Below are positions 6,298 to 64,000 of a DNA stretch of 64,000 nt, piece by piece. A program made the translations under genes and the position numbers. This stretch comes from Acholoe squamosa (taxonomy: Eukaryota; Annelida; Polychaeta; Phyllodocida; Polynoidae): positions 5,327,674 through 5,391,673 of the forward strand of contig OX439045.1 of the NCBI GenBank assembly GCA_949317995.1. The letters are read 5' to 3'. Numbering within the stretch: the stretch's first letter is position 1; each line of letters starts with the position of its first letter. Below the pieces are notes generated by a model. That model did no database searches and was not told where the DNA came from. It saw only the letters and a list, made by a program, of their open reading frames with translations.

Positions 6298-6711
6298 AAC
6301 ATCTCAAAGATATTAACTGAGACGTTCAAAAGATTCTATATTAGGCTCTCACAAATCTCAAATATAATTGCCATCCAAAAATGTGAAGTTATCAAGTGTG
6401 GCACGATTCAAAGTGCCTTGGACATGATCCAAAATGTCAATCAAATTTCACCTAGCCATGGATCACAGGCCCATTATGTCAGAGTTATTGGTTCATAAAT
6501 GGCTAATGCTACCTGGACTCCTCATGGAGTTATTTTTAGTCACAAGGGGAATTCCGCGGACGTCATTTATAAGGTGGGAATCCCCATGATGGAGCATGTT
6601 AATATTGATGATGGTGTCATGTATTGTGTGAAGAGAGATCAATACCTGAGGTAGGATGGGGAGCTGGTTCACACACGCTGTACAAGCACTGTTAGAAAGA
6701 TACACTGTTTA
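6298..6711. other. No gene or repeat recognised
   Basis: Nothing supportable beyond short open frames of 60-70 residues. Confidence 0.4.
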
Positions 6712-7041
6712 TGCTTTAAGGGCTGCTGATGCATTAATGCATCATGGCCATTAGTCGGCATGATGCACCAATGAAGTGCTGGTGAGACTACTAGCAAGCA
6801 CTTCATTGGTGCATCATGCCCATTGGTCGTCGTGATGCACCAATGAAGTGCTGGCGAGCAGTCTCGCCAGCACTTCATTGGAGCATCATGCCGACCCTCT
6901 GGGAGTTTGTGTATCAACCCCGTATGGTCGGCATGATACAGGAATGCAGCCCTGGCCAGATACTTGCCAGGGCTGCATTAATGCATCATGACGACAAATG
7001 GGCATGATGCATTAATGCATCAGCGGGCCTTAAAGAGGTAA
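6712..7041. mobile_element. Family P full-length copy (reference layout)
   Basis: The modules are: TIR (CTTTAAGGGCTGCTGATGCA), an A hairpin (6757-6818), a second A hairpin (6830-6890), a linker hairpin with CCGACCCTCTGGGAG and its partner ATGGTCGGCATG, a B hairpin (6931-6987) and the inverted TIR to about 7041. It has no room for a transposase, so it must move in trans. The CCCTTTAAGGG tips and TTAA ends elsewhere suggest a piggyBac-type MITE. That class assignment is inference. Confidence 0.85.
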
Positions 7042-7964: not shown

Positions 7965-8211
7965 TTAACATTTAAGGGCCGCTGATGCATTAATGCATCA
8001 TGCCCATTGGTCGTCATGATGCAGTAATGAAGTGCTGGTGAGTCTGCTTGCTAGCACTTCATTGGTGCATCATGCTTATCCTCTGGTTGTATATCAACGC
8101 TGCAGCGTCGTCATGATGCATGCATATCAATACATGAGGTGTTATTCACCAGGGCTGCATTCGACCAATGGGCATGATGCATTACTGCATCAACAGCCCT
8201 TAAATGGTTAA
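7965..8211. mobile_element. Family P copy with TTAA at both ends
   Basis: TTAA at 7965-7968 and 8208-8211 directly flanks inverted termini CATTTAAGGGCCGCTGATGC and its complement (AACAGCCCTTAAATG). The A hairpin is intact and the B hairpin has lost its left arm. This is one of the clearest boundary examples for the TTAA assignment. Confidence 0.85.
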
Positions 8212-8463
8212 CATGTCAATGTGACCCCATGCTAGAGGGCACTAGTACCTGTGTACAATAATGTGAGAAACCTAACAGTCAGGATGCCCCATGGAGCCCT
8301 TCATGGATTATCCTTTCTGCTCAGAACCATGTATAACAGTCATACCTGCAGGGGCTCATTTCCACCTGTAAGAGCCACCGCCCATGGAGGGATCCCACCA
8401 ACATACCTACAGCATTATACACCTGTGTGTTGGTCAGATTAGTTTGGGCTCAGATAGCCCTTG

Positions 8464-8729
8464 AAGAGCCACTGATGCTGGAGTGCATCATGCCCATTGG
8501 TTGGCATTATGCACCAATGAAGTGCTGGCGCATCTGCTCGCCCTGGCGAGTCTACTCGCCGGCACTTAATTGGTGCATCATACTGTCCCTGCAGGAGTGT
8601 ATTAACCCTGTAGGGTCAGTACGATGCTTGGATGTAGCCCTGGCACGTTACTCACCCAGGCTATATTCATGCATCATGACCACCAATGGGCATGATGCAT
8701 TAATGCATTAGCAGTCTATAAAATGTTAA
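8464..8729. mobile_element. Family P copy, partly duplicated at 10.7 kb
   Basis: A hairpin with a duplicated apex (two CTCGCC segments, 8533-8560), then linker, a damaged B hairpin and the right TIR ending at TTAA 8726-8729. The right part plus unique flank to 8776 recurs at 10717-10904. Confidence 0.8.
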
Positions 8730-8776: not shown

Positions 8777-9532
8777 AATGCTTATAAATCTCTCATTTCA
8801 GTGTAAAATATCAAGGATAGTAGACTAATTCTAGCATCAAAATATCACAAGTATTTTACAATGAAATTAAACCTTGCAAAACAGTAAAACCTCTATTATT
8901 GTAAACCTCTTCTGAGGAAAGTAAGGACTAAATGCTAAAACATCCATCCTGTTTATCATATATTCCTGTCTGTAGTTATATTTTGTTTTCTCCTTCTCCC
9001 AATGATCAAAGTCCCAGTTGGACCCCCCTCCTCAGGATAACATGGCCCCAGTGGTGGTCCATAGTGTCCCAACACTTCTAATCCCTCAGCATACACTGAA
9101 CTATTTCAACAAGTACTCAACTCAGGTGCTTTGGAAGGGTCCCAATAACAGGGCTGAAGATCAAAGACTAAAAAGGACCATAGTAATGGTGTAAATATTT
9201 GGTGAGTCATTGGTAATTAATAAAGAAGGGGGTGGAGTGTTCTCATCAAGGCATTCCTTGTTAATTAGTTTGGGTCAATTGAGTTTATTTGGCTCCAGCA
9301 ACTCTTTAAGAGCAGTATTTCAGTGCTTGATTTTCTATATACTGTATATTTTATGTGTAATGTGGGGATTTGCGCAGTTTGGCAATACCAAAGCAGGAAT
9401 GATAATTCTTATGAAACAAGTTGATATTGAGACAGATATTTAGAATTTATATTCTGATTCATTGTCTATCCCATCCTCAAGATGTAATTCTCTCATAGGC
9501 CAGTCCAAGATTTACAAGTGACTATTGAGGGC
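8777..9532. other. No gene or repeat recognised
   Basis: AT-rich. A 77-residue open frame (9210-9443) has no domain or signal I can identify. Confidence 0.4.
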
Positions 9533-9716
9533 TAGCATCGACTATAGTCGATACCATGGTAGGCCTAGCATCGACTATAGTCGACACCATGGTAGGCCTA
9601 GCGCAGACTATAGTCGACACCATGGTAGGCCTAGCGCCGACTATAGTCGACACAATGGTAGGCCTAGCGTCGACTATAGTCGACACCATGGTAGGCCTAG
9701 CGTTGATTATAGTCGA
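9533..9716 (+). repeat. 33-bp minisatellite made of palindromes
   Basis: About 5.5 copies of a 33-bp unit. Each holds the palindromes GTCGACTATAGTCGAC (16 bp), ACCATGGT and TAGGCCTA end to end. Substitutions among units are few. The overlapping open frames (33 is divisible by 3) are an artefact. Confidence 0.9.
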
Positions 9717-20011: not shown

Positions 20012-20274
20012 GTCTGCACATTCCTGACATTCCTTAACCCTTTAAAGGCCGCTGATGCATTGGTGCATCATGCCTTTTGGTCGTCATGATGCACCAGTGC
20101 TGGCGAGACTGCTCGCCAGCACTTCATTGGAGCATCATGCCGACCCTCCAGGAGTATATTTATCAAACCTGTAGGATCGTCATGATGCTTCATTGGCGCA
20201 TCATGACGATGAAATGGCATGATACACTTCTGCATCAGCAGCCTAACCGTCTGCACATTCCTCACATTCCTTAA
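20012..20274. repeat. 26-bp direct repeats around a P copy
   Basis: TCTGCACATTCCTGACATTCC plus TTAA (to 20037) recurs with one mismatch at 20249-20274. The repeats are far longer than a TTAA target duplication and the P right end between them is truncated, which suggests a repair or template-switch event. Confidence 0.75.
20034..20248. mobile_element. Family P copy, right TIR truncated
   Basis: TTAA 20034-20037, then CCCTTTAAAGGCCGCTGATG, an A hairpin with a shortened left arm (CACCAGTGCTGG against CCAGCACTTCATTGG), a linker and a partial A-like hairpin. The terminal AGCCCTTAAAGGG is replaced by AGCCTAACC. Confidence 0.8.
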
Positions 20275-26605: not shown

Positions 26606-27047
26606 ACTGCTAATGCAGGAGTGCATCATGCCCATTGGGCGTCATGATGCAGCAATGAAGTGCTGGAGAGACTGCTCACCAGTACTTCATTGGTGCATCA
26701 TGCCCATTGGTCGTCATGATGCACCAATGAAGTGCTGGAGAGACTGCTCACCAGCACTTCATTGGTGCATCATGCCCATGGGTCGGCATGATGCACTAAT
26801 GAAGTGCTTGAGAGACTGCTCACCAGCACTTCATTGGGCGTCATGATGCAGCAATGAAGTGCTGGTGAGTCTAGTCTCCAGCACTTTATCGGAGCATCAT
26901 GCTGACCCTCCGGGAGTGTATTAGTCCCGTAGGGTCGGCATGATGCTTGAATATAGCCCTGGTGAGTTACTCACTAGGGCCGCATTCATGCATCATGATG
27001 ACCAATATGCATGATGCATTAATACATCAGAGGCATTTAAAGGGTAA
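26606..27047. mobile_element. Family P copy with A hairpin amplified in tandem
   Basis: Four successive A hairpins start at about 26641, 26713, 26785 and 26840 (steps 72, 72 and 55 bp), each a near-perfect stem of CAATGAAGTGCTGG. Linker, B hairpin (26940-26998) and the right TIR (ATTTAAAGGG) follow. Single copies normally have one or two A hairpins. Confidence 0.85.
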
Positions 27048-29755: not shown

Positions 29756-30013
29756 TTTACCCTTTAAGGGCCACTTATGCAGGAGTGCATCATGCCCATT
29801 GGTCGTTATGTAGCACCATTGAAGTGCTAGTGAGTCTGCTCGCCAGCACTTGATTGGTGCATCATGCCGACCCTCCAGGAGTGTATCAACACTGTACGGC
29901 CGGCATGGTGAATGGATGTAGCCCCGGTGAGTTACTTATTAGGGCTGTGTTCAAGTATCATGATCACCGATGGGTATAATGCATTCATGTATTTTCAGCG
30001 CTCAAAGGATTAA
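29756..30013. mobile_element. Family P copy with diverged B hairpin
   Basis: ACCCTTTAAGGGCCACTTATG start, A hairpin (one arm altered: TGATTGGTG), linker with CCGACCCTCCAGGAG and ACGGCCGGCATG, eroded B hairpin, end at TTAA 30010-30013. Confidence 0.8.
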
Positions 30014-38400: not shown

Positions 38401-38467
38401 CCCGTACATTGACTATTGTCCATGGGGTGATTAAGATTACTACATGTACACCTATAATTGCCCTTAT

Positions 38468-39195
38468 CCCTTTAAGGGCCACATGATGCCTCCAGTCTAT
38501 TGCTTGTTTGGAGGAGTGCATAATGCCCATTGGTCGGCATGATGCACCAATGAAGTGCCGGTGAGATTTTCGTTAGAGCAGCATGTCGAACCTCTGGGAG
38601 CATATCGACCCCGTAGAATCGGCATCCCTGGAGGGTTAGTCATCAAGGCTGCATTAATGCATCATATGTCACCCAATGTCCATGATGCATTAATGCATCA
38701 TATGTCACCCAATGTCCATGATGCATTAATGCATCATATGTCACCCAATGTCCATGATGCATTAATGCATCATATGTCACCCAATGTCCATGCTACATTA
38801 ATGCATCATATGTCACCCAATGTCCATGATGCATTAATGCATCATATGTCACCCAATGTCCATGATGCATTAATGCATCATATGTCACCCAATGTCCATG
38901 ATGCATTAATGCATCATATGTCACCCAATGTCCATGATGCATTAATGCATCATATGTCACCCAATGTCCATGATGCATTAATGCATCATATGTCACCCAA
39001 TGTCCATGCTACATTAATGCATCATATGTCACCCTATGTCCATGATGCATTAATGCATCATATGTCACCCAATGTCCATGATGCATTAATGCATCATATG
39101 TCACCCAATGTCCATAATGCATTAATGCATCATATGTCACCCAATGTCCATGATAAATTAATGCATATACTACCTTGAAAGGACCATAGGGTTAA
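38468..39195. mobile_element. Family P copy expanded by an internal minisatellite
   Basis: CCCTTTAAGGGCCACATGATG left end, a truncated A hairpin and a linker precede the 36-bp array. After it come TTGAAAGGACCATAGGGTTAA. The array occupies the place of the outer GCATTAATGCATCATG segment. Confidence 0.8.
38650..39166 (+). repeat. 36-bp minisatellite, about 14 units
   Basis: Each unit holds the perfect palindrome ATGATGCATTAATGCATCAT followed by ATGTCACCCAATGTCC. Units 4 and 10 share the variant CATGCTACATTAAT, consistent with duplication of a six-unit block. The 207-residue open frame across it exists only because 36 is a multiple of 3. Confidence 0.95.
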
Positions 39196-44031: not shown

Positions 44032-45813
44032 ATGGCTTCTACGTGGTTGTCACGGTTCAAAATTGGACAGTTTGTGGAGGTAAATAAGGATGAAGAATGG
44101 ATATGTGGGATAGTAACCAATGTCGTACACAAAGGCTACTATGAATACGAGGTGCGACTTTTTACAGACGGCTCGTATGTTAAAGAAATGGCCAGACAAA
44201 TGCGAGAAACTCCAGTGGATATGAGCGATGAGACTGCACCCGAATATAAACCTCCTACCGGTATCAAAGACGAGCCGAAAAGATTTGTTTCTTTGCCAAA
44301 TGAACATCTAAATACCATAGAAATGGCCTCTAAATCGAAGAACACGCACAAGGCTACCAAATGGGGTGTGGATATTTTCAAAGGTAAGAATTTATAATGT
44401 GAATTCTAGTTTGACAAGTCGAAAAAACTTTCATATACATTATGCAGGGCCTTATGGCGGGCCGCGACCGGACCATGAATACGCATGATGAGTGCGCAGG
44501 GAGCATATATTAATTTTTTCGTCGTTACTTGGTACATATGAACGTTCATTGTAAAACTTGAAGTAGAAGATCAGCTATTTTTTTTTTGTAAATACTTTAT
44601 TAAACATTCAATTTTTTCTCAAATTGTTTAATTTTTTTTTACAGCTTGGCTGGTGGAAAATGACGAACAAAGTGACTTTGAAGAATTCTCCAAAGAAGCT
44701 CTGGCTCCCCTATTGAGACGTTTCTACGGAGAAGTTAGGACAAAAGATGGTCAGGAATACAACAAGAGATCTTTGATGTCCATAAGAGGTGCCATTCAAC
44801 GTCATATAACTTCTCCCCCATTCAATAGAAATTTCAACATAATGACAGATCCTCTCTTTGTTCAATGTAACAATATGTTGAAGGGAAAAATAAAAATGAA
44901 CAAAAAAAGTGGTCTAGATGTATCTAAGCATTACGAACCTATCACTGAAGAAGACAAAAAAAAAATGTACTCTTCAGGTGTTCTTTCAAATGACAGCCCT
45001 TTCTCTTTACAGAATAAGGTTTTCTTTGAGATGGTGTTACATTTTGGTCGCAGGGCCAGAGAGGGTCTACACGATTTGAAAAAGGAAGATTTTGTGTTCA
45101 AATTAGATGCAGATGGGCATGAATTTGCTTCTCTCAGGTTTAATTCCACTGAAAAAAATCATCAGGGCATGACCCAGGATGCCCGAGAGCATGAGCAGAG
45201 GATGTACTCCACAGGCACTGCCTCATGCCCTGTGAAATCCCTGAAGATATATCTGTCAAAATTGAACCCAAATTGTACAGCTTTCTTGCAAACCTACAAG
45301 AAAAAAAATTACAAGTTGAGTACCACTTGGTATACTGTGACTCCCATGGGTGTAAATACCATAGGAAAAATCATGAATCGTATATCTTATGCTGCCTGTC
45401 TCAGTAAAATATATACAAACCATTGCATTCGTGCTACATGTATAACCACACTCAGAGAAAAGGGTCTTGCTGCCCGTGATATAAAATCTGTAACAGGGCA
45501 CAAGAGTGAACAATCTATTGATTATTATTCCAAGACTCCAGATGCCCTGAGGCATGTCATGTCCCTGACCTTGGCAGGTGACAATGCCTCAAGGCATGAG
45601 AAGTCTGCCACAACCACCAAAGCTTGTGCCACAGCCTCTAAACCTTGTGCCACAACCTCCACAGCTTCTGTGCCAAGTGCCACCAATATCATATCTTCTA
45701 CCAAGAATGATGTAAAAATGGCTGACATCCAAATCTCTGAGGTACAAGATAAAACCACAGTATTCAGCCATGTAAACTTCACCAACTGCACTGTTCATAT
45801 CAATATGAAATAA
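44032..45813 (+). CDS. Crypton-type tyrosine recombinase (DUF3504-like) with Tudor-like N-terminus, two exons
   Basis: Exons 44032-44383 and 44645-45813 join in frame to give about 506 residues. The start CAACATGGC is a strong Kozak context. Residues about 8-60 (FKIGQFVEV, EEWICGIV, YYEYEVRLFTDG) look like a Tudor/Agenet barrel. Residues about 108-230 (WGVDIFK joined to AWLV, then LLRRFYGEVR, YNKRSLMSIRGAIQRH) match the core-binding region of Crypton and KIAA1958/ZMYM-like proteins. The catalytic part has GRRAREGL (Arg near 254), NHCIRAT (His 377, Arg 380), TGHKSEQS (His 403) and YY (411/412), the tyrosine-recombinase signature. A Ser/Thr/Ala-rich tail ends in FTNCTVHINM. Known Cryptons cut and rejoin DNA through the tyrosine, and vertebrate relatives are domesticated. 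Whether this one is a mobile element or a host gene is undecided. No paralogue or terminal direct repeat was seen. Confidence 0.85.
44384..44644 (+). other. Intron of the recombinase gene
   Basis: Donor AAAG|GTAAGAA and acceptor TTTTTTTTTACAG|CT fit GT/AG rules. Splicing joins a phase-1 codon (G+CT, Ala) and brings the motif IFK next to AWLV, as in relatives. Without splicing the frame stops at 44395-44397. Confidence 0.8.
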
Positions 45814-47607: not shown

Positions 47608-47911
47608 CACTGAAAACATGGAAGATCCGAAACTAGTCAGCGGTGACCACTTTAGGTCCTCATGTTGACGATACCTAAAACTACAACTTTAGGTAGTCAA
47701 AAGGATGACTTTAGGTCGTAATCCTGACGACCTGAGTCTTCAATATGAAGACTCTGTACTGTCAGTATTGTCATTCTGACGACTCAGATCGTCAGGACGA
47801 TGACCTAAAGTCGTCATTTTGACTACCTAAAGTTGTAGTTTTAGGTATCGTCAACTTGAGGACCTAAAGTGGTCACCGCTGACTAGTTTCGGATCTTCCA
47901 TGTTTTCAGTG
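47608..47911. mobile_element. 304-bp near-perfect palindrome (CACTGAAAACATGG ends)
   Basis: The first about 90 bp of the left arm and the last about 90 bp of the right arm differ at about one position. Pairing continues with more differences toward the centre. The arms repeat ACTTTAGGT / ACCTAAAGT and GACGA words. It has the structure of a hairpin MITE, but no clear target duplication is visible. Confidence 0.85.
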
Positions 47912-48227: not shown

Positions 48228-48483
48228 ATATATATATATGGCCACTAATGCAGGAGTGCATCATGCCCATTGGTCATCATGATGCATGAATGCAGCCTTG
48301 CCGAGTAACTCGCCAGGGCTACATTCACACATCATACCAACCCTAACAGGTTCATACACTCCCAGAGGATTGGCATGATGCTCCAATGAAGTGCTGGTGA
48401 GCAAACTAACAGCACTTCATTGGTGCATCATGACGACCAATGGACATGACGTGTTAATGCATCATCGGCCCTTAAAAGGTTAA
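48228..48483. mobile_element. Family P copy, B then A order, right TTAA end
   Basis: GGCCACTAATGCAGGAGTGCA left segment, a B hairpin whose arms differ (GCAGCC against GGCTAC), linker, an A hairpin and the right TIR (ATCGGCCCTTAAAAGG) ending at TTAA 48480-48483. Confidence 0.8.
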
Positions 48484-52999: not shown

Positions 53000-53436
53000 C
53001 ATTAAGGGTCCCATGATGCCTCCAGGTTAATGGTCCTGGGTCGTCATGATGCACCAATGCAGTGCTACTCACTCGCACTGCATTGGTGCATCATGACAAC
53101 TCTGTAAATACAGGACTCTCCAGGGCTGCATTCATGCATCATGACAACTGCAGGGCAATGCAGAAGTGCATCATGCCCACTGGGCATCACGATGCACCAA
53201 AGAAGTGCTGGCGCGTCTTCTTGCCACAACTTAATCAGCGCATCTGGCCGACTCAGTCAGCATGATGCATGAATGCTGCCCTGGTGATTTGTTCCACAGG
53301 GCTGCATTCATGCATCATGACGACCAATGGGCATGATGCATGAATGCTGCCCTGGTGATTTGTTCCACAGGGCTGCATTCATGCATCATGAAGACCAATG
53401 GGCATGATGCATGAATGCATCATCGGCCCTGAAAGC
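53000..53436. mobile_element. Two family P copies with a duplicated B hairpin
   Basis: The first part has an A hairpin with matched changes (AATGCAGTGC / GCACTGCATT; 53052-53092). Further right, a 71-bp B-hairpin unit (GCATGATGCATGAATGCTGC...) is present twice in tandem from 53260 to 53402, both copies sharing the same unmatched GCTGCCC/GGGCTGC stem. Ends CATCATCGGCCCTGAAAG. Confidence 0.75.
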
Positions 53437-53654: not shown

Positions 53655-54307
53655 GTATCACACTACCTATCACACAGGAGGGGTGTGATACGTAGTGAGA
53701 TACCTAGGGTATCACACTGTGTATCACAAAGGAGGGTGTGATATGTAGTGTGATACCTGGGTATCACACTACATATCACACAGGAGGGGGTGTGATACGT
53801 AGTGTGATACCTGGGTATCACACTACCTATCACACAGGAGGGGTGTGATACGTAGTCAGATACCTAGGGTATCACACTACGTATCACACAGGAGGGGTGT
53901 GATACGTAGTGTGATACCTGGATATCACACTATGTATTACACAGGAGGGGGTGTGATACATAGTGAGATACCTAGGGTATCACACTACGTATCACAGAGG
54001 AGGGGTGTGATACATAGTGAGATACCTAGGGTATCACACTACGTATCACACAGGAGGGGTGTGATACGTAGTGTGATACCTGGGTATCACACTACGTATC
54101 ACACAGGAGGGGTGTGATACGTAGTGAGATACCTAGGGTATCACACTACGTATCACACAGGAGGGGTGTGATACGTAGTGTGATACCTGGGTATCACACT
54201 ACGTATCACACAGGAGGGGTGTGATATGTAGTGAGATACCTGGGTATCACACTACGTATCACACAGGAGGGGGTGTGATACGTTGTGAGATACCTAGGGT
54301 ATCACAC
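53655..54307 (+). repeat. Minisatellite of 52-55 bp hairpin units, 12 copies
   Basis: Each unit contains TATCACACTACGTATCACAC and its exact inverse GTGTGATACGTAGTGTGATA around AGGAGGGG. The junction between units (ATACCTGGGTAT) is also self-complementary. Two unit types (GTGTGATACCTGGG and GTGAGATACCTAGGG) alternate in part, suggesting a dimeric higher-order unit of about 107 bp. Confidence 0.95.
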
Positions 54308-54625
54308 TTATGGTCCATCCCTGCATTTCCACGGATTTGTCATCATGACAGTATAAATTCATCAACTTAATGCATGCATCGTGCAATTTCGGTGTCTGTG
54401 CGATATATATTCCTGACTGCACCCTTGCGATGGATAGGCAATGTATCTTGCAGATATACAGACTATATCAAGAATCAGTAGACATGAAGGTTGGGGCGGG
54501 GGGAGGCGAGGATTTAAGAGCAGTGATCAGCAAATATGGCCCTAGTCCAGGTAGGCCAACGGTTACATGAGTGGGTGCACAACTCAGGTAGCAATGATAA
54601 CGGCTGCTCTGCATACCCTTGTGCG
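54308..54625. other. No gene recognised
   Basis: A 66-residue frame is unsupported. Confidence 0.35.
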
Positions 54626-54837
54626 TTAACCCTATAGGGGCCGCTGATGCAGGAGTGCATCATGCCCATTGGTCTTAATTGAAGCATCATGCCGGCCCAT
54701 TAGGGGTGTTTCAGTTTCAGGGTTCGTCATGATGCATGAATGCAGCTCTGGAAATTAACTCGCCTGCTCTGCATTCATGCATCATGCCAACCAATGGGCA
54801 CGATGCATTAATCAATTTATGGCCCCTAAAGTTTTAA
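54626..54837. mobile_element. Family P short copy with TTAA at both ends
   Basis: TTAA 54626-54629, CCCTATAGGGGCCGCTGATG, no A hairpin (deleted), linker, B hairpin, right TIR (TTTATGGCCCCTAAAG) and TTAA 54834-54837. Confidence 0.8.
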
Positions 54838-60159: not shown

Positions 60160-63100
60160 TTAACTATCTGTTCCCTCCCCCTCCCCACCATCAGACAACC
60201 CTAGCCCTGATGTTACTTTCTGTACCCAGTCTATCCGTCCCCTCCCCTCCCCACCATCAGACAACCCTAACCCTGATGTTACTTTCTGTACCCAGTCTAT
60301 CCGTCCCCTTCCCTCCCCACCATCAGACAACCCTAACCCTGATGTTACTTTCTGTACCCAGTCTATCTGTCCCCTTCCCTCCCCACCATCAGACAACCCT
60401 AACCCTGAAGTTACTTTCTGTACCCAGTCTATCCGTCCCCTCCCCTCCCCACCATCAGACAACCCTAACCCTGATGTTACTTTCTGTACCCAGTCTATCC
60501 GTCCCCTTCCCTCCCCACCATCAGACAACCCTAACCCTGATGTTACTTTCTGTACCCAGTCTATCTGTCCCCTTCCCTCCCCACCATCAGACAACCCTAA
60601 CCCTGATGTTACTTTCTGTACCCAGTCTATCCGTCCCCTCCCCTCCCCACCATCAGACAACCCTAACCCTGATGTTACTTTCTGTACCCAGTCTATCCGT
60701 CCCCTTCCCTCCCCACCATCAGACAACCCTAACCCTGAAGTTACTTTCTGTACCCAGTCTATCCGTCCCCTCCCCACCATCAGACAACCCTAACCCTGAT
60801 GTTACTTTCTGTACCCAGTCTATCCGTCCCCTCCCCACCATCAGACAACCCTAACCCTGATGTTACTTTCTGTACCCAGTCTATCCGTCCCGTCCCCTCC
60901 CCCACCATCAGACAACCCTAACCCTGAAGTTACTTTCTGTACCCAGTCTATCCGTCCCCTCCCCACCATCAGACAACCCTAACCCTGATGTTACTTTCTG
61001 TACCCAGTCTATCCGTCCCCTCCCCTCCCCACCATCAGACAACCCTAACCCTGATGTTACTTTCTGTACCCAGTCTATCCGTCCCCTCCCCTCCCCACCA
61101 TCAGACAACCCTAACCCTGATGTTACTTTCTGTACCCAGTCTATCCGTCCCGTCCCCTCCCCACCATCAGACAACCCTAACCCTGATGTTACTTTCTGTA
61201 CCCAGTCTATCCGTCCCCTCCCCACCATCAGACAACCCTAACCCTGATGTTACTTTCTGTACCCAGTCTATCTGTCCCGTCCCCTCCCCCACCATCAGAC
61301 AACCCTAACCCTGATGTTACTTTCTGTACCCAGTCTATCTGTCCCGTCCCCTCCCCACCATCAGACAACCCTAACCCTGATGTTACTTTCTGTACCCAGT
61401 CTATCCGTCCCCTCCCCACCATCAGACAACCCTAACCCTGATGTTACTTTCTGTACCCAGTCTATCCGTCCCCTCCCCCACCATCAGACAACCCTAACCC
61501 TGATGTTACTTTCTGTACCCAGTCTATCCGTCCCCTCCCCACCATCAGACAACCCTAACCCTGATGTTACTTTCTGTACCCAGTCTATCCGTCCCCTCCC
61601 CTCCCCACCATCAGACAACCCTAACCCTGATGTTACTTTCTGTACCCAGTCTATCCGTCCCCTCCCCTCCCCACCATCAGACAACCCTAACCCTGATGTT
61701 ACTTTCTGTACCCAGTCTATCCGTCCCCTTCCCTCCCCCACCATCAGACAACCCTAACCCTGATGTTACTTTCTGTACCCAGTCTATCCGTCCCCTCCCC
61801 ACCATCAGACAACCCTAACCCTGATGTTACTTTCTGTACCCAGTCTATCCGTCCCCTCCCCACCATCAGACAACCCTAACCCTGATGTTACTTTCTGTAC
61901 CCAGTCTATCCGTCCCCTTCCCACCATCAGACAACCCTCACCCTGATGTTACTTTCTGTACCCAGTCTATCCGTCCCCTCCCCTCCCCACCATCAGACAA
62001 CCCTAACCCTGATGTTACTTTCTGTACCCAGTCTATCTGTCCCCTCCCCTCCCCCACCATCAGACAACCCTAACCCTGATGTTACTTTCTGTACCCAGTC
62101 TATCCGTCCCCTCCCCTCCCCCACCATCAGACAACCCTAACCCTGAAGTTACTTTCTGTACCCAGTCTATCCCTCCCCTTCCCACCATCAGACAACCCTA
62201 ACCCTGAAGTTACTTTCTGTACCCAGTCTATCCGTCCCCTCCCCACCATCAGACAACCCTAACCCTGAAGTTACTTTCTGTACCCAGTCTATCCGTCCCC
62301 TCCCCACCATCAGACAACCCTAACCCTGATGTTACTTTCTGTACCCAGTCTATCCGTCCCCTCCCCACCATCAGACAACCCTAACCCTGATGTTACTTTC
62401 TGTACCCAGTCTATCCGTCCCCTTCCCTCCCCACCATCAGACAACCCTAACCCTGATGTTACTTTCTGTACCCAGTCTATCCGTCCCCTCCCCTCCCCAC
62501 CATCAGACAACCCTAACCCTGAAGTTACTTTCTGTACCCAGTCTATCCGTCCCCTCCCCACCATCAGACAACCCTAACCCTGATGTTACTTTCTGTACCC
62601 AGTCTATCCGTCCCCTTCCCTCCCCACCATCAGACAACCCTAACCCTGAAGTTACTTTCTGTACCCAGTCTATCCGTCCCCTCCCCCACCATCAGACAAC
62701 CCTAACCCTGATGTTACTTTCTGTACCCAGTCTATCCGTCCCCTCCCCTCCCCACCATCAGACAACCCTAACCCTGAAGTTACTTTCTGTACCCAGTCTA
62801 TCCGTCCCCTCCCCACCATCAGACAACCCTAACCCTGAAGTTACTTTCTGTACCCAGTCTATCCGTCCCCTCCCCTCCCCACCATCAGACAACCCTAACC
62901 CTGAAGTTACTTTCTGTACCCAGTCTATCCGTCCCCTCCCCTCCCCACCATCAGACAACCCTAACCCTGATGTTACTTTCTGTACCCAGTCTATCTGTCC
63001 CCTCCCCTCCCCACCATCAGACAACCCTAACCCTGATGTTACTTTCTGTACCCAGTCTATCTGTCCCCTCCCCTCCCCACCATCAGACAACCCTAACCCT

Positions 63101-64000
63101 GAAGTTACTTTCTGTACCCAGTCTATCCGTCCCCTTCCCACCATCAGACAACCCTAACCCTGAAGTTACGTTCTGTACCCAGTCTATCCGTCCCCTCCCC
63201 TCCCCACCATCAGACAACCCTAACCCTGATGTTACTTTCTGTACCCAGTCTATCCGTCCCCTCCCCTCCCCCACCATCAGACAACCCTAACCCTGATGTT
63301 ACTTTCTGTACCCAGTCTATCTGTCCCCTCCCCTCCCCACCATCAGACAACCCTAACCCTGATGTTACTTTCTGTACCCAGTCTATCTGTCCCCTCCCCT
63401 CCCCACCATCAGACAACCCTAACCCTGATGTTACTTTCTGTACCCAGTCTATCCGTCCCCTCCCCTCCCCCACCATCAGACAACCCTAACCCTGAAGTTA
63501 CTTTCTGTACCCAGTCTATCCGTCCCCTCCCCTCCCCCACCATCAGACAACCCTAACCCTGATGTTACTTTCTGTACCCAGTCTATCTGTCCCCTCCCCT
63601 CCCCACCATCAGACAACCCTAACCCTGATGTTACTTTCTGTACCCAGTCTATCCGTCCCCTCCCCACCATCAGACAACCCTAACCCTGAAGTTACTTTCT
63701 GTACCCAGTCTATCCGTCCCCTCCCCTCCCCACCATCAGACAACCCTAACCCTGATGTTACTTTCTGTACCCAGTCTATCCGTCCCCTCCCCCACCATCA
63801 GACAACCCTAACCCTGATGTTACTTTCTGTACCCAGTCTATCTGTCCCCTCCCCACCATCAGACAACCCTAACCCTGATGTTACTTTCTGTACCCAGTCT
63901 ATCCGTCCCCTTCCCTCCCCACCATCAGACAACCCTAACCCTGATGTTACTTTCTGTACCCAGTCTATCCGTCCCCTTCCCTCCCCACCATCAGACAACC
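60160..64000 (+). repeat. 61-67 bp satellite with telomere-like and G-run motifs, about 60 units
   Basis: The unit is ACCATCAGACAACCCTAACC, CTGATGTTACTTTCTGTACC, CAGTCTATCCGTCCCCTCCC. Length variation is almost entirely in the C-rich spacer (one or two CTCCC blocks). Point variants GATGTT/GAAGTT and TCCGTC/TCTGTC are mixed along the array. The words TCTGTCCCCTTCC at 60363 and 60561 are 198 bp (three units) apart, hinting at local three-unit higher order. Each unit has AACCCTAACCCT (telomere-like). The array runs off the right edge. Open frames of up to 255 residues on both strands are artefacts of 66-bp units. Confidence 0.97.

What the first reader, a model, noticed from the sequence alone, without database searches (positions are those of the whole stretch)
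6712..7041. Family P: a transposon built as a chain of hairpins
Full copies consist of consecutive near-perfect hairpins (A stem CACCAATGAAGTGCTGG, linker stem CCGACCCT, B stem ATGAATGCAGCCCTGG) between inverted termini whose tips, CCCTTTAAGGG, are themselves palindromic. All hairpins share the frame CATGATGCA...GGCGAG. More than 30 copies or fragments lie in 64 kb. Ordinary MITEs have one pair of terminal repeats, so a serial-hairpin architecture is unusual. It could feed small-RNA pathways or arise from repeated palindrome duplication. Function is not shown.
Basis: partly seen in the sequence, partly recalled or inferred. Interest (0 to 1): 0.85.

Follow-up and report, generated by a model that had tools for sequence, protein, structure and literature searches.

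The report
Palindrome-studded TTAA-inserting MITE family
The "chain of hairpins" is a very abundant short DNA transposon that inserts at TTAA and is built of palindromes nested inside one end-to-end palindrome; it looks like a piggyBac-type passenger element rather than an RNA device.

Summary
The copy at 6712-7041 belongs to a very large family: the A-stem 17-mer (up to 2 mismatches) occurs 84,265 times in the 1.48-Gb genome, tandem arrays included; reversed control 103. A consensus of 41 two-hairpin copies is TTAA|CCCTTTAAGGGCCGC-[mini-hairpin]-spacer-[hairpin]-linker-[hairpin]-spacer-[mini-hairpin]-GCGGCCCTTAAAGGG|TTAA. The serial hairpins are real, but the A-A consensus folds best as one end-to-end hairpin: palindromes nested in a foldback MITE. 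Seven fetched empty sites of one insertion lack the element. Best reading: a non-autonomous piggyBac-like MITE. Its terminal mini-palindrome lies at bp 16-33 from the tip; piggyBac's CRD-dimer palindrome lies at 17-33, and one resident piggyBac end has one at 15-34; most other ends lack it. Hairpin types A and B differ at five positions, always on both arms, with no chimera in 133 units. Within type A, arm mutations are independent (7 compensated, 6.5 expected). Copies crowd chromosome ends (72 of 77 exact tips on C1 in the outer 16 Mb; 19 expected). No autonomous partner was found.

The parts
6709..7041 (.). Three-hairpin copy of the MITE, including degenerate TTAA remnants (TTAT 6709-6712, GTAA 7038-7041)
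   Evidence: sequence; profile hits 6711-7040; fold
6727..6744 (.). Left terminal mini-palindrome TGATGCATTAATGCATCA (predicted transposase CRD-dimer site)
   Evidence: exact match; position compared with piggyBac ends
6759..6818 (.). Hairpin A1 (CATGATGCA CCAATGAAGTGCTGG ... TGCATCATG)
6831..6890 (.). Hairpin A2, a tandem duplicate at 72-bp spacing from A1
   Evidence: (TRF 6738-6892, period 72)
6891..6931 (.). Linker with inverted CCGACCCT / AGGGTCGG arms (right arm here ATGGTCGG) around an asymmetric loop
6932..6990 (.). Hairpin B (GAATGCAGCCCTGG ... CCAGGGCTGCATTAA)
7005..7022 (.). Right terminal mini-palindrome TGATGCATTAATGCATCA
   Evidence: exact match
7967..8211 (.). Two-hairpin copy, both ends
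8456..8729 (.). Two-hairpin A-B copy, both ends
20034..20244 (.). Copy with both ends
26606..27046 (.). Copy with A hairpins multiplied in tandem (72-bp and 55-bp periods) followed by a B hairpin
29757..30013 (.). Copy with tip CCCTTTAAGGGCC
38464..39182 (.). Copy whose terminal mini-palindrome + spacer is amplified into a 36-bp x 14.4 array (38650-39166)
48238..48483 (.). Two-hairpin B-A copy
53260..53418 (.). Tandem B hairpins, 71-bp period, 98% alike
54626..54836 (.). Copy with both ends (TTAACCC at left)

Best explanation
It is a non-autonomous cut-and-paste DNA transposon (MITE) of piggyBac type. It inserts at TTAA and duplicates it (shown for one insertion by empty sites, and by TTAA at both ends of many copies). 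No coding sequence was seen in the copies, so it must be moved by a transposase in trans (inferred; the partner was not found). Its tip plus the mini-palindrome at bp 16-33 match the two transposase-contact zones of known piggyBac ends: the tip bound by the core domains and a palindrome bound by a CRD dimer (inferred from position). The motif TGATGCA/TGCATCA, which frames the A and B hairpins, is best read as the CRD half-site reiterated inward: DNA recognition, not RNA folding. The internal hairpins arose in source copies by inverted duplication, giving A and B as complete palindromes (inferred), and by tandem duplication of hairpin+spacer units. After insertion each copy decays neutrally, arms included (shown for type A).
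For: TTAA: 34 of 61 copies with a recognisable 3' end finish exactly in TTAA although only the left TTAA was in the query, and 19 of the other 27 are one substitution away. Empty sites: 9 of 49 matches to the joined flanks of 8 loci span a junction, all for L090; 7 of these 9 were fetched and all 7 run through the junction without the element, 5 with intact TTAA and 2 with one substitution. Resident piggyBac elements L009, L010 and L013 have TTAACCC on both sides. Palindrome position: MITE 16-33; L013 right end 15-34, same centre; piggyBac 17-33 (PMC7351741, passages); piggyBat 19-30 with further palindromes inward on its left end (PMC11707139, passages). The 4-bp centre varies (TTAA, GGAG/CTCC) while half-sites and spacing mostly hold. 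Arms: 91 A/A, 39 B/B, 0 A/B of 133 units; type A compensated 7 vs 6.5 expected.
Against: No transposase gene with this tip and mini-palindrome as its own ends was found: 30 loci at 25 places and 20 further flanks of 10 of them were examined; 60 of the 90 PF13843 matches gave no locus. Family fragments in two flanks (L138, L128) are read as truncated copies. The palindrome match is not general: of 7 other resident ends (L009 two, L010 two, L013 left, L011 right, L012 right), L009 left has a looser repeat at 14-35 (6-bp arms, 10-bp spacer; its tip is ambiguous), L012 right one at 26-41, and the rest none with perfect arms there, although L011 right, of L013's kind, has an imperfect version by eye. 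Type B shows 13 compensated against 7.7 expected (shuffle mean 7.6, sd 2.4), 7 of them at one C/T position, read as a subfamily. TTAA is also used by Kolobok (recalled). Empty sites come from 1 of 8 loci.
Confidence: 0.7

Rival explanations
1. A TTAA-inserting MITE moved by another superfamily that also uses TTAA, such as Kolobok. The mini-palindrome would then match the piggyBac position by coincidence.
For: TTAA duplication alone does not separate the two; no piggyBac gene with this tip was found; most resident piggyBac ends lack a palindrome at that position.
Against: CCC/GGG tips shared with three resident piggyBac elements; palindrome centre at bp 24.5, the same as in L013 right end and close to published piggyBac ends.
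Confidence: 0.15
2. A hairpin-RNA or small-RNA source: stems are kept because transcripts are processed into 20-24-nt RNAs.
For: Very stable folding of the window copy and of the consensus; A and B stems differ at five positions, all matched on both arms; type B has more compensated pairs than expected (13 vs 7.7); G.T is slightly commoner than A.C (142 vs 112, p 0.07).
Against: Within type A, arm mutations are independent (7 vs 6.5), so individual copies are not held to pairing; no Rfam match at gathering score. Any transposon made of inverted repeats folds well.
Confidence: 0.07
3. A palindromic satellite or repeat spread by recombination or replication slippage rather than by transposition.
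For: Some units are tandem arrays (24-, 34-, 36-, 72-bp), and copies crowd chromosome ends.
Against: Empty sites of L090, defined tips, TTAA on both sides of dispersed copies.
Confidence: 0.04

Closest known systems
piggyBac-type non-autonomous elements / MITEs
   Same: TTAA target duplication, CCC...GGG tips, no coding sequence seen, palindrome at about bp 17-33 from the tip
   Different: Several large internal palindromes that share one frame, nested in an end-to-end inverted repeat; variable hairpin number; no partner found
piggyBac and piggyBat transposon ends (PMC7351741, PMC11707139; passages read)
   Same: Tip motif followed by a CRD-dimer palindrome; piggyBat LE repeats its motif+palindrome pair three times inward
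   Different: In the MITE the half-sites recur at the bases of ~60-bp hairpins, and both ends are alike
Foldback elements such as Galileo and Tm1 (PMC4168063, PMC3169594; title and start of abstract in the listing only)
   Same: Long inverted repeats with internal repetition (recalled, not read)
   Different: Galileo is placed in the P superfamily and Tm1 called Mutator/Foldback in that listing; here the target is TTAA
SIRC of Arabidopsis (PMC10342631; abstract and outline seen)
   Same: Proposed origin as a complex internal repeat structure of a MITE
   Different: Direct repeats that lost their terminal inverted repeats, pericentromeric; here hairpins, intact tips and distal location
TE-related satellite DNAs of oysters (PMC11136912, PMC8268682; title and start of abstract in the listing only)
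   Same: Tandem arrays linked to transposable elements
   Different: Other families and hosts; here the amplified unit is the predicted transposase-binding end unit

Membership tests
piggyBac superfamily (non-autonomous) | TTAA target-site duplication | tested here: met
   34 of 61 right ends exact TTAA; 7 of 7 fetched empty sites of L090 continuous, 5 with intact TTAA
piggyBac superfamily (non-autonomous) | Tips CCC...GGG like resident autonomous elements | tested here: met
   L009, L010, L013 have TTAACCC on both sides; consensus
piggyBac superfamily (non-autonomous) | Subterminal palindrome at the CRD-binding position | tested here: inconclusive
   MITE 16-33 and L013 right 15-34, but of 7 other resident ends only L009 left has a (looser) repeat there
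piggyBac superfamily (non-autonomous) | Shares termini with an element coding a DDE_Tnp_1_7 transposase | tested here: inconclusive
   None among the 25 places examined, but 60 of 90 matches had no locus and long flanks were fetched for 10 genes only; no genome-wide paired-tip scan was possible
MITE (general) | Short, non-coding, high copy, inverted termini, target duplication | tested here: met
   consensus 263 bp including both TTAA; counts; empty sites; non-coding judged by length and decay, no coding test run
Kolobok (TTAA) | Shares termini with a Kolobok transposase element | not tested
   no search made for a Kolobok transposase
Hairpin-RNA / small-RNA locus | Base pairing maintained across copies | tested here: not met
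   type A arm mutations independent, 7 vs 6.5; type B 13 vs 7.7, 7 of the 13 at one C/T position
Hairpin-RNA / small-RNA locus | Stacked 20-24-nt reads | not testable with these tools
   no RNA reads available

The most novel reading that the evidence does not exclude
The element is a transposase-site multiplier: the CRD-dimer half-site pair TGATGCA/TGCATCA has been copied recursively (mini-palindrome, hairpin bases, end-unit arrays of 34-36 bp), so one short element offers many binding palindromes. This would help it win transposase or titrate it, and it would explain both the serial hairpins and the birth of satellites from its ends.
Probability: 0.3. Interest if true: 0.6.

Novelty: new variant of a known kind. 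Interest (0 to 1): 0.45.

Why it matters
It turns a puzzling 'hairpin chain' into a testable statement about transposon ends: the recurring palindrome sits where piggyBac transposases bind as a dimer. With thousands of copies in one genome (13,070 tips within 2 mismatches), it offers a large natural series of end architectures, shows how MITE ends can seed satellites, and gives a case where strong predicted folding carries little sign of RNA-level selection. The distal bias (72 of 77 exact tips on C1 in 25% of its length) is worth explaining in its own right.

Tried and rejected
Autonomous partner: searched PF13843 (90 matches, 30 loci at 25 places), scanned those loci for the family's tip and frame motifs and fetched 20 flanking stretches of 10 of the genes. 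None has the tip and mini-palindrome as its own ends. L138 holds about 70 bp of a right terminus behind what looks like a retrotransposon tail, and L128 a decayed copy; both read as copies near the gene. L011 and L012 lie beside 38-bp arrays of end-like repeats TTAACCCTTTATGGATGGCATGATGCA; considered as autonomous ends and rejected, because both loci also show a different GGGTTAA tip (in L012 nearer the gene than the array, in L011 on the other side of the gene).

Arm correction or selection on pairing within copies: rejected for type A. Type B has an excess (13 vs 7.7), 7 of the 13 at position 6 C/T.

Species: the 18-chromosome top shell Gibbula magus was tried and rejected (longest scaffold 117.5 Mb in passages of PMC10394393, vs 127.1 Mb here). 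A test for an abalone protein family (PF01303) did not complete.

Empty sites within already fetched DNA: the spanning matches fell on the locus itself or on sequence of this same family (read from coordinates), hence the genome search.

Divergence of distal (36, median 0.15) and interior (5, median 0.16) two-hairpin copies does not differ visibly; 5 is too few to conclude.

In print: literature searches and a letter search for six stretches of the family (one unrelated bacterial paper) showed no description of it in titles and abstracts listed. Subscription journals and repeat databases are not held.

Full report
WHAT WAS CHECKED. The window is G000:C11:5327674-5391673 of a 1.48-Gb genome in 63 contigs, unnamed. 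The window holds 39 clusters with at least two frame motifs, one mismatch allowed; a profile made from copies elsewhere in the genome covers 8,869 of 64,000 bases.

CHANCE. The A-stem 17-mer with up to 2 mismatches occurs 41,755 + 42,510 times in the genome; the reversed control 36 + 67. This count includes tandem arrays of A-like halves such as the 24-bp x 40 array of L001, so it is not twice the number of hairpins. The 26-base tip TTAACCCTTTAAGGGCCGCTGATGCA (up to 2 mismatches) occurs 6,555 + 6,515 times, control 0 + 0. A 37-base B-hairpin half (up to 3 mismatches) occurs 4,521 + 4,572 times, control 0 + 0. The window has 23 + 20 A-stem matches, 672 per Mb against 57 per Mb genome-wide.

ANATOMY. 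I fetched 80 of the 100 exact tips listed (68 of the 77 on C1, 12 of the 23 listed on C2, chosen by hand along the list). Of the 80, 61 have a recognisable right end. Their lengths cluster at 221-276 bp; these 41 were aligned (L042 and L043 among them are near-identical duplicates). Consensus: TTAA, CCCTTTAAGGGCCGC, TGATGCATTAATGCATCA, spacer, hairpin, linker with CCGACCCT/AGGGTCGG arms, hairpin, spacer, mini-palindrome, GCGGCCCTTAAAGGG, TTAA. Median divergence from the majority consensus is 15.2% (4.3-24.0%). Hairpin orders among the 61: A-A 19, A-B 13, B-A 12, one hairpin 11 (A 10, B 1), three or four 5, none 1; no B-B. Copies with a weak second hairpin count as one; L103 (A-A-A-A) is two elements side by side. 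L108 (162 bp) is a one-hairpin form and, by eye, almost an end-to-end palindrome.

FOLD. The A-A consensus folds as a single end-to-end hairpin of -168.8 kcal/mol (DNA; shuffles -40.6, z -35). The window copy folds mainly as a long foldback stem with local linker and B hairpins. So the chain is one of two alternative folds: palindromes nested in a foldback.

TRANSPOSITION. 34 of 61 right ends finish exactly in TTAA, and 19 of the other 27 are one substitution away, although the query fixed only the left one. I searched the joined flanks of 8 loci. Nine of 49 matches span a junction, all that of L090; seven of the nine were fetched, and all seven are continuous through the junction, five with TTAA intact and two with one substitution; small gaps lie elsewhere in the flank. 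The other seven loci gave no spanning match among the 49. So this element inserted at TTAA and duplicated it.

WHICH TRANSPOSASE. The genome has piggyBac transposases (90 PF13843 matches). Three elements (L009, L010, L013) have TTAACCC on both sides. None of the 25 places examined has the MITE tip and mini-palindrome as its own ends. Positional evidence: published piggyBac ends carry a palindromic repeat at bp 17-33 bound by a CRD dimer (PMC7351741, passages), and piggyBat one at 19-30, repeated inward (PMC11707139, passages). The MITE mini-palindrome is at bp 16-33, and L013's right end has AGGGCCGAAAATTCGGCCCT at 15-34, the same centre. Against it: of 7 other resident ends, L009 left has a looser repeat at 14-35 (its tip is ambiguous, as TTAACCC stands there twice), L012 right one at 26-41, and L009 right, both L010 ends, L013 left and L011 right none with perfect arms in that place; L011 right has an imperfect version of L013's, by eye. 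Half-sites and 4-bp spacing mostly hold while the centre changes between TTAA and GGAG/CTCC, as expected for a protein site. I therefore think it works as a piggyBac-type passenger, but leave formal membership open.

HOW THE HAIRPINS AROSE AND WHETHER THEY ARE KEPT. From 115 loci (L001-L118 less L002, L007 and L025, which overlap others) and the window I took 133 hairpin units by frame alone, not by pairing. Five positions separate A from B; the arms are A/A in 91, B/B in 39, unclear in one arm in 3, A/B in none. So A and B are separate complete palindromes, as inverted duplication would give. Within type A, mutations on the two arms are independent: 7 compensated vs 6.5 expected, with position 15 (a CpG; 12 vs 10.0) left out. 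Type B has 13 vs 7.7 (shuffle mean 7.6, sd 2.4), position 15 again left out, 7 of the 13 at one C/T position, which I read as a subfamily. Mismatches of G.T kind number 142 against 112 A.C (p 0.07): a slight lean. Type A copies thus decay without upkeep of pairing. Hairpin number grows by tandem duplication of 71-72-bp units (26621-26845, 94%; 53260-53418, 98%).

END UNITS BECOME SATELLITES. In the window copy at 38464-39182 the end unit (mini-palindrome + spacer) is amplified to 36 bp x 14.4. L003 shows an A-linker-B copy whose end unit is repeated 7.5 times (34 bp) before the tip; L006 has a 34-bp x 6.2 array of the same unit; L001 has a 24-bp x 40 array of an A-like half.

CHROMOSOMAL PLACE. 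Of 77 exact tips on C1 (127.1 Mb), 72 lie in the outer 16 Mb at either end; 19.4 expected if uniform. Of the 100 exact B halves listed, the 75 on C1-C5, C7 and C8 were counted: 69 in the outer 16 Mb, 24.0 expected; 25 on C6, C9 and C10 were left out (length unknown or list cut). A control repeat has 100 listed places in the first 14.25 Mb of C1, where the list ends, 78 expected from its genome-wide count; tips have 38 there against 8.6 expected from their C1 count. The bias is therefore stronger than for that one repeat.

VERDICT. A real, very abundant TTAA-inserting MITE, probably piggyBac-type, with an unusual modular palindrome architecture. The small-RNA idea has no clear support in sequence and awaits RNA data. 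I saw no description of the family in the searches named; repeat databases were not available.

Noticed in passing
window 60164-64000: 66-bp satellite (59.5 copies, 93%) with strong C-over-G skew (-0.64 in the last 4 kb) and a telomere-like CCCTAACCCT in the consensus unit; runs to the window end.
   Followed up: no
window 53655-54308: 54-bp tandem array of palindromic units (GTATCACACTACGTATCACAC...), 12 copies.
   Followed up: no
window 9528-9716: 33-bp tandem array with an internal palindrome GTCGACTATAGTCGAC.
   Followed up: no
window 44632-45813: 393-aa open frame with DUF3504 and a weak phage-integrase match, resembling Crypton-like tyrosine recombinases (name recalled).
   Followed up: partly
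window 47608-47911: Inverted repeat with 141-bp arms, 93% complementary, 22-bp gap, not hit by the family profile.
   Followed up: no
L011:1-240 and L012:3150-3489: 38-bp arrays TTAACCCTTTATGGATGGCATGATGCATTGATGCACAG beside piggyBac transposase genes: a related end-like unit in tandem.
   Followed up: partly
right flank of L115 (C1:123069798-123069851): Another dispersed repeat that begins at TTAA (TTAAGCTGACCGCAGACGGG...), matched at many places; possibly a second TTAA MITE family.
   Followed up: no
genome-wide, e.g. C1:392445 and C1:392714: Repeat TACCGTAATCTCCCGCGTATAAGGCGC, 8,105 exact places, often as inverted pairs about 269 bp apart: another MITE-like family; a related stretch is nested in the copy L099.
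   Followed up: partly
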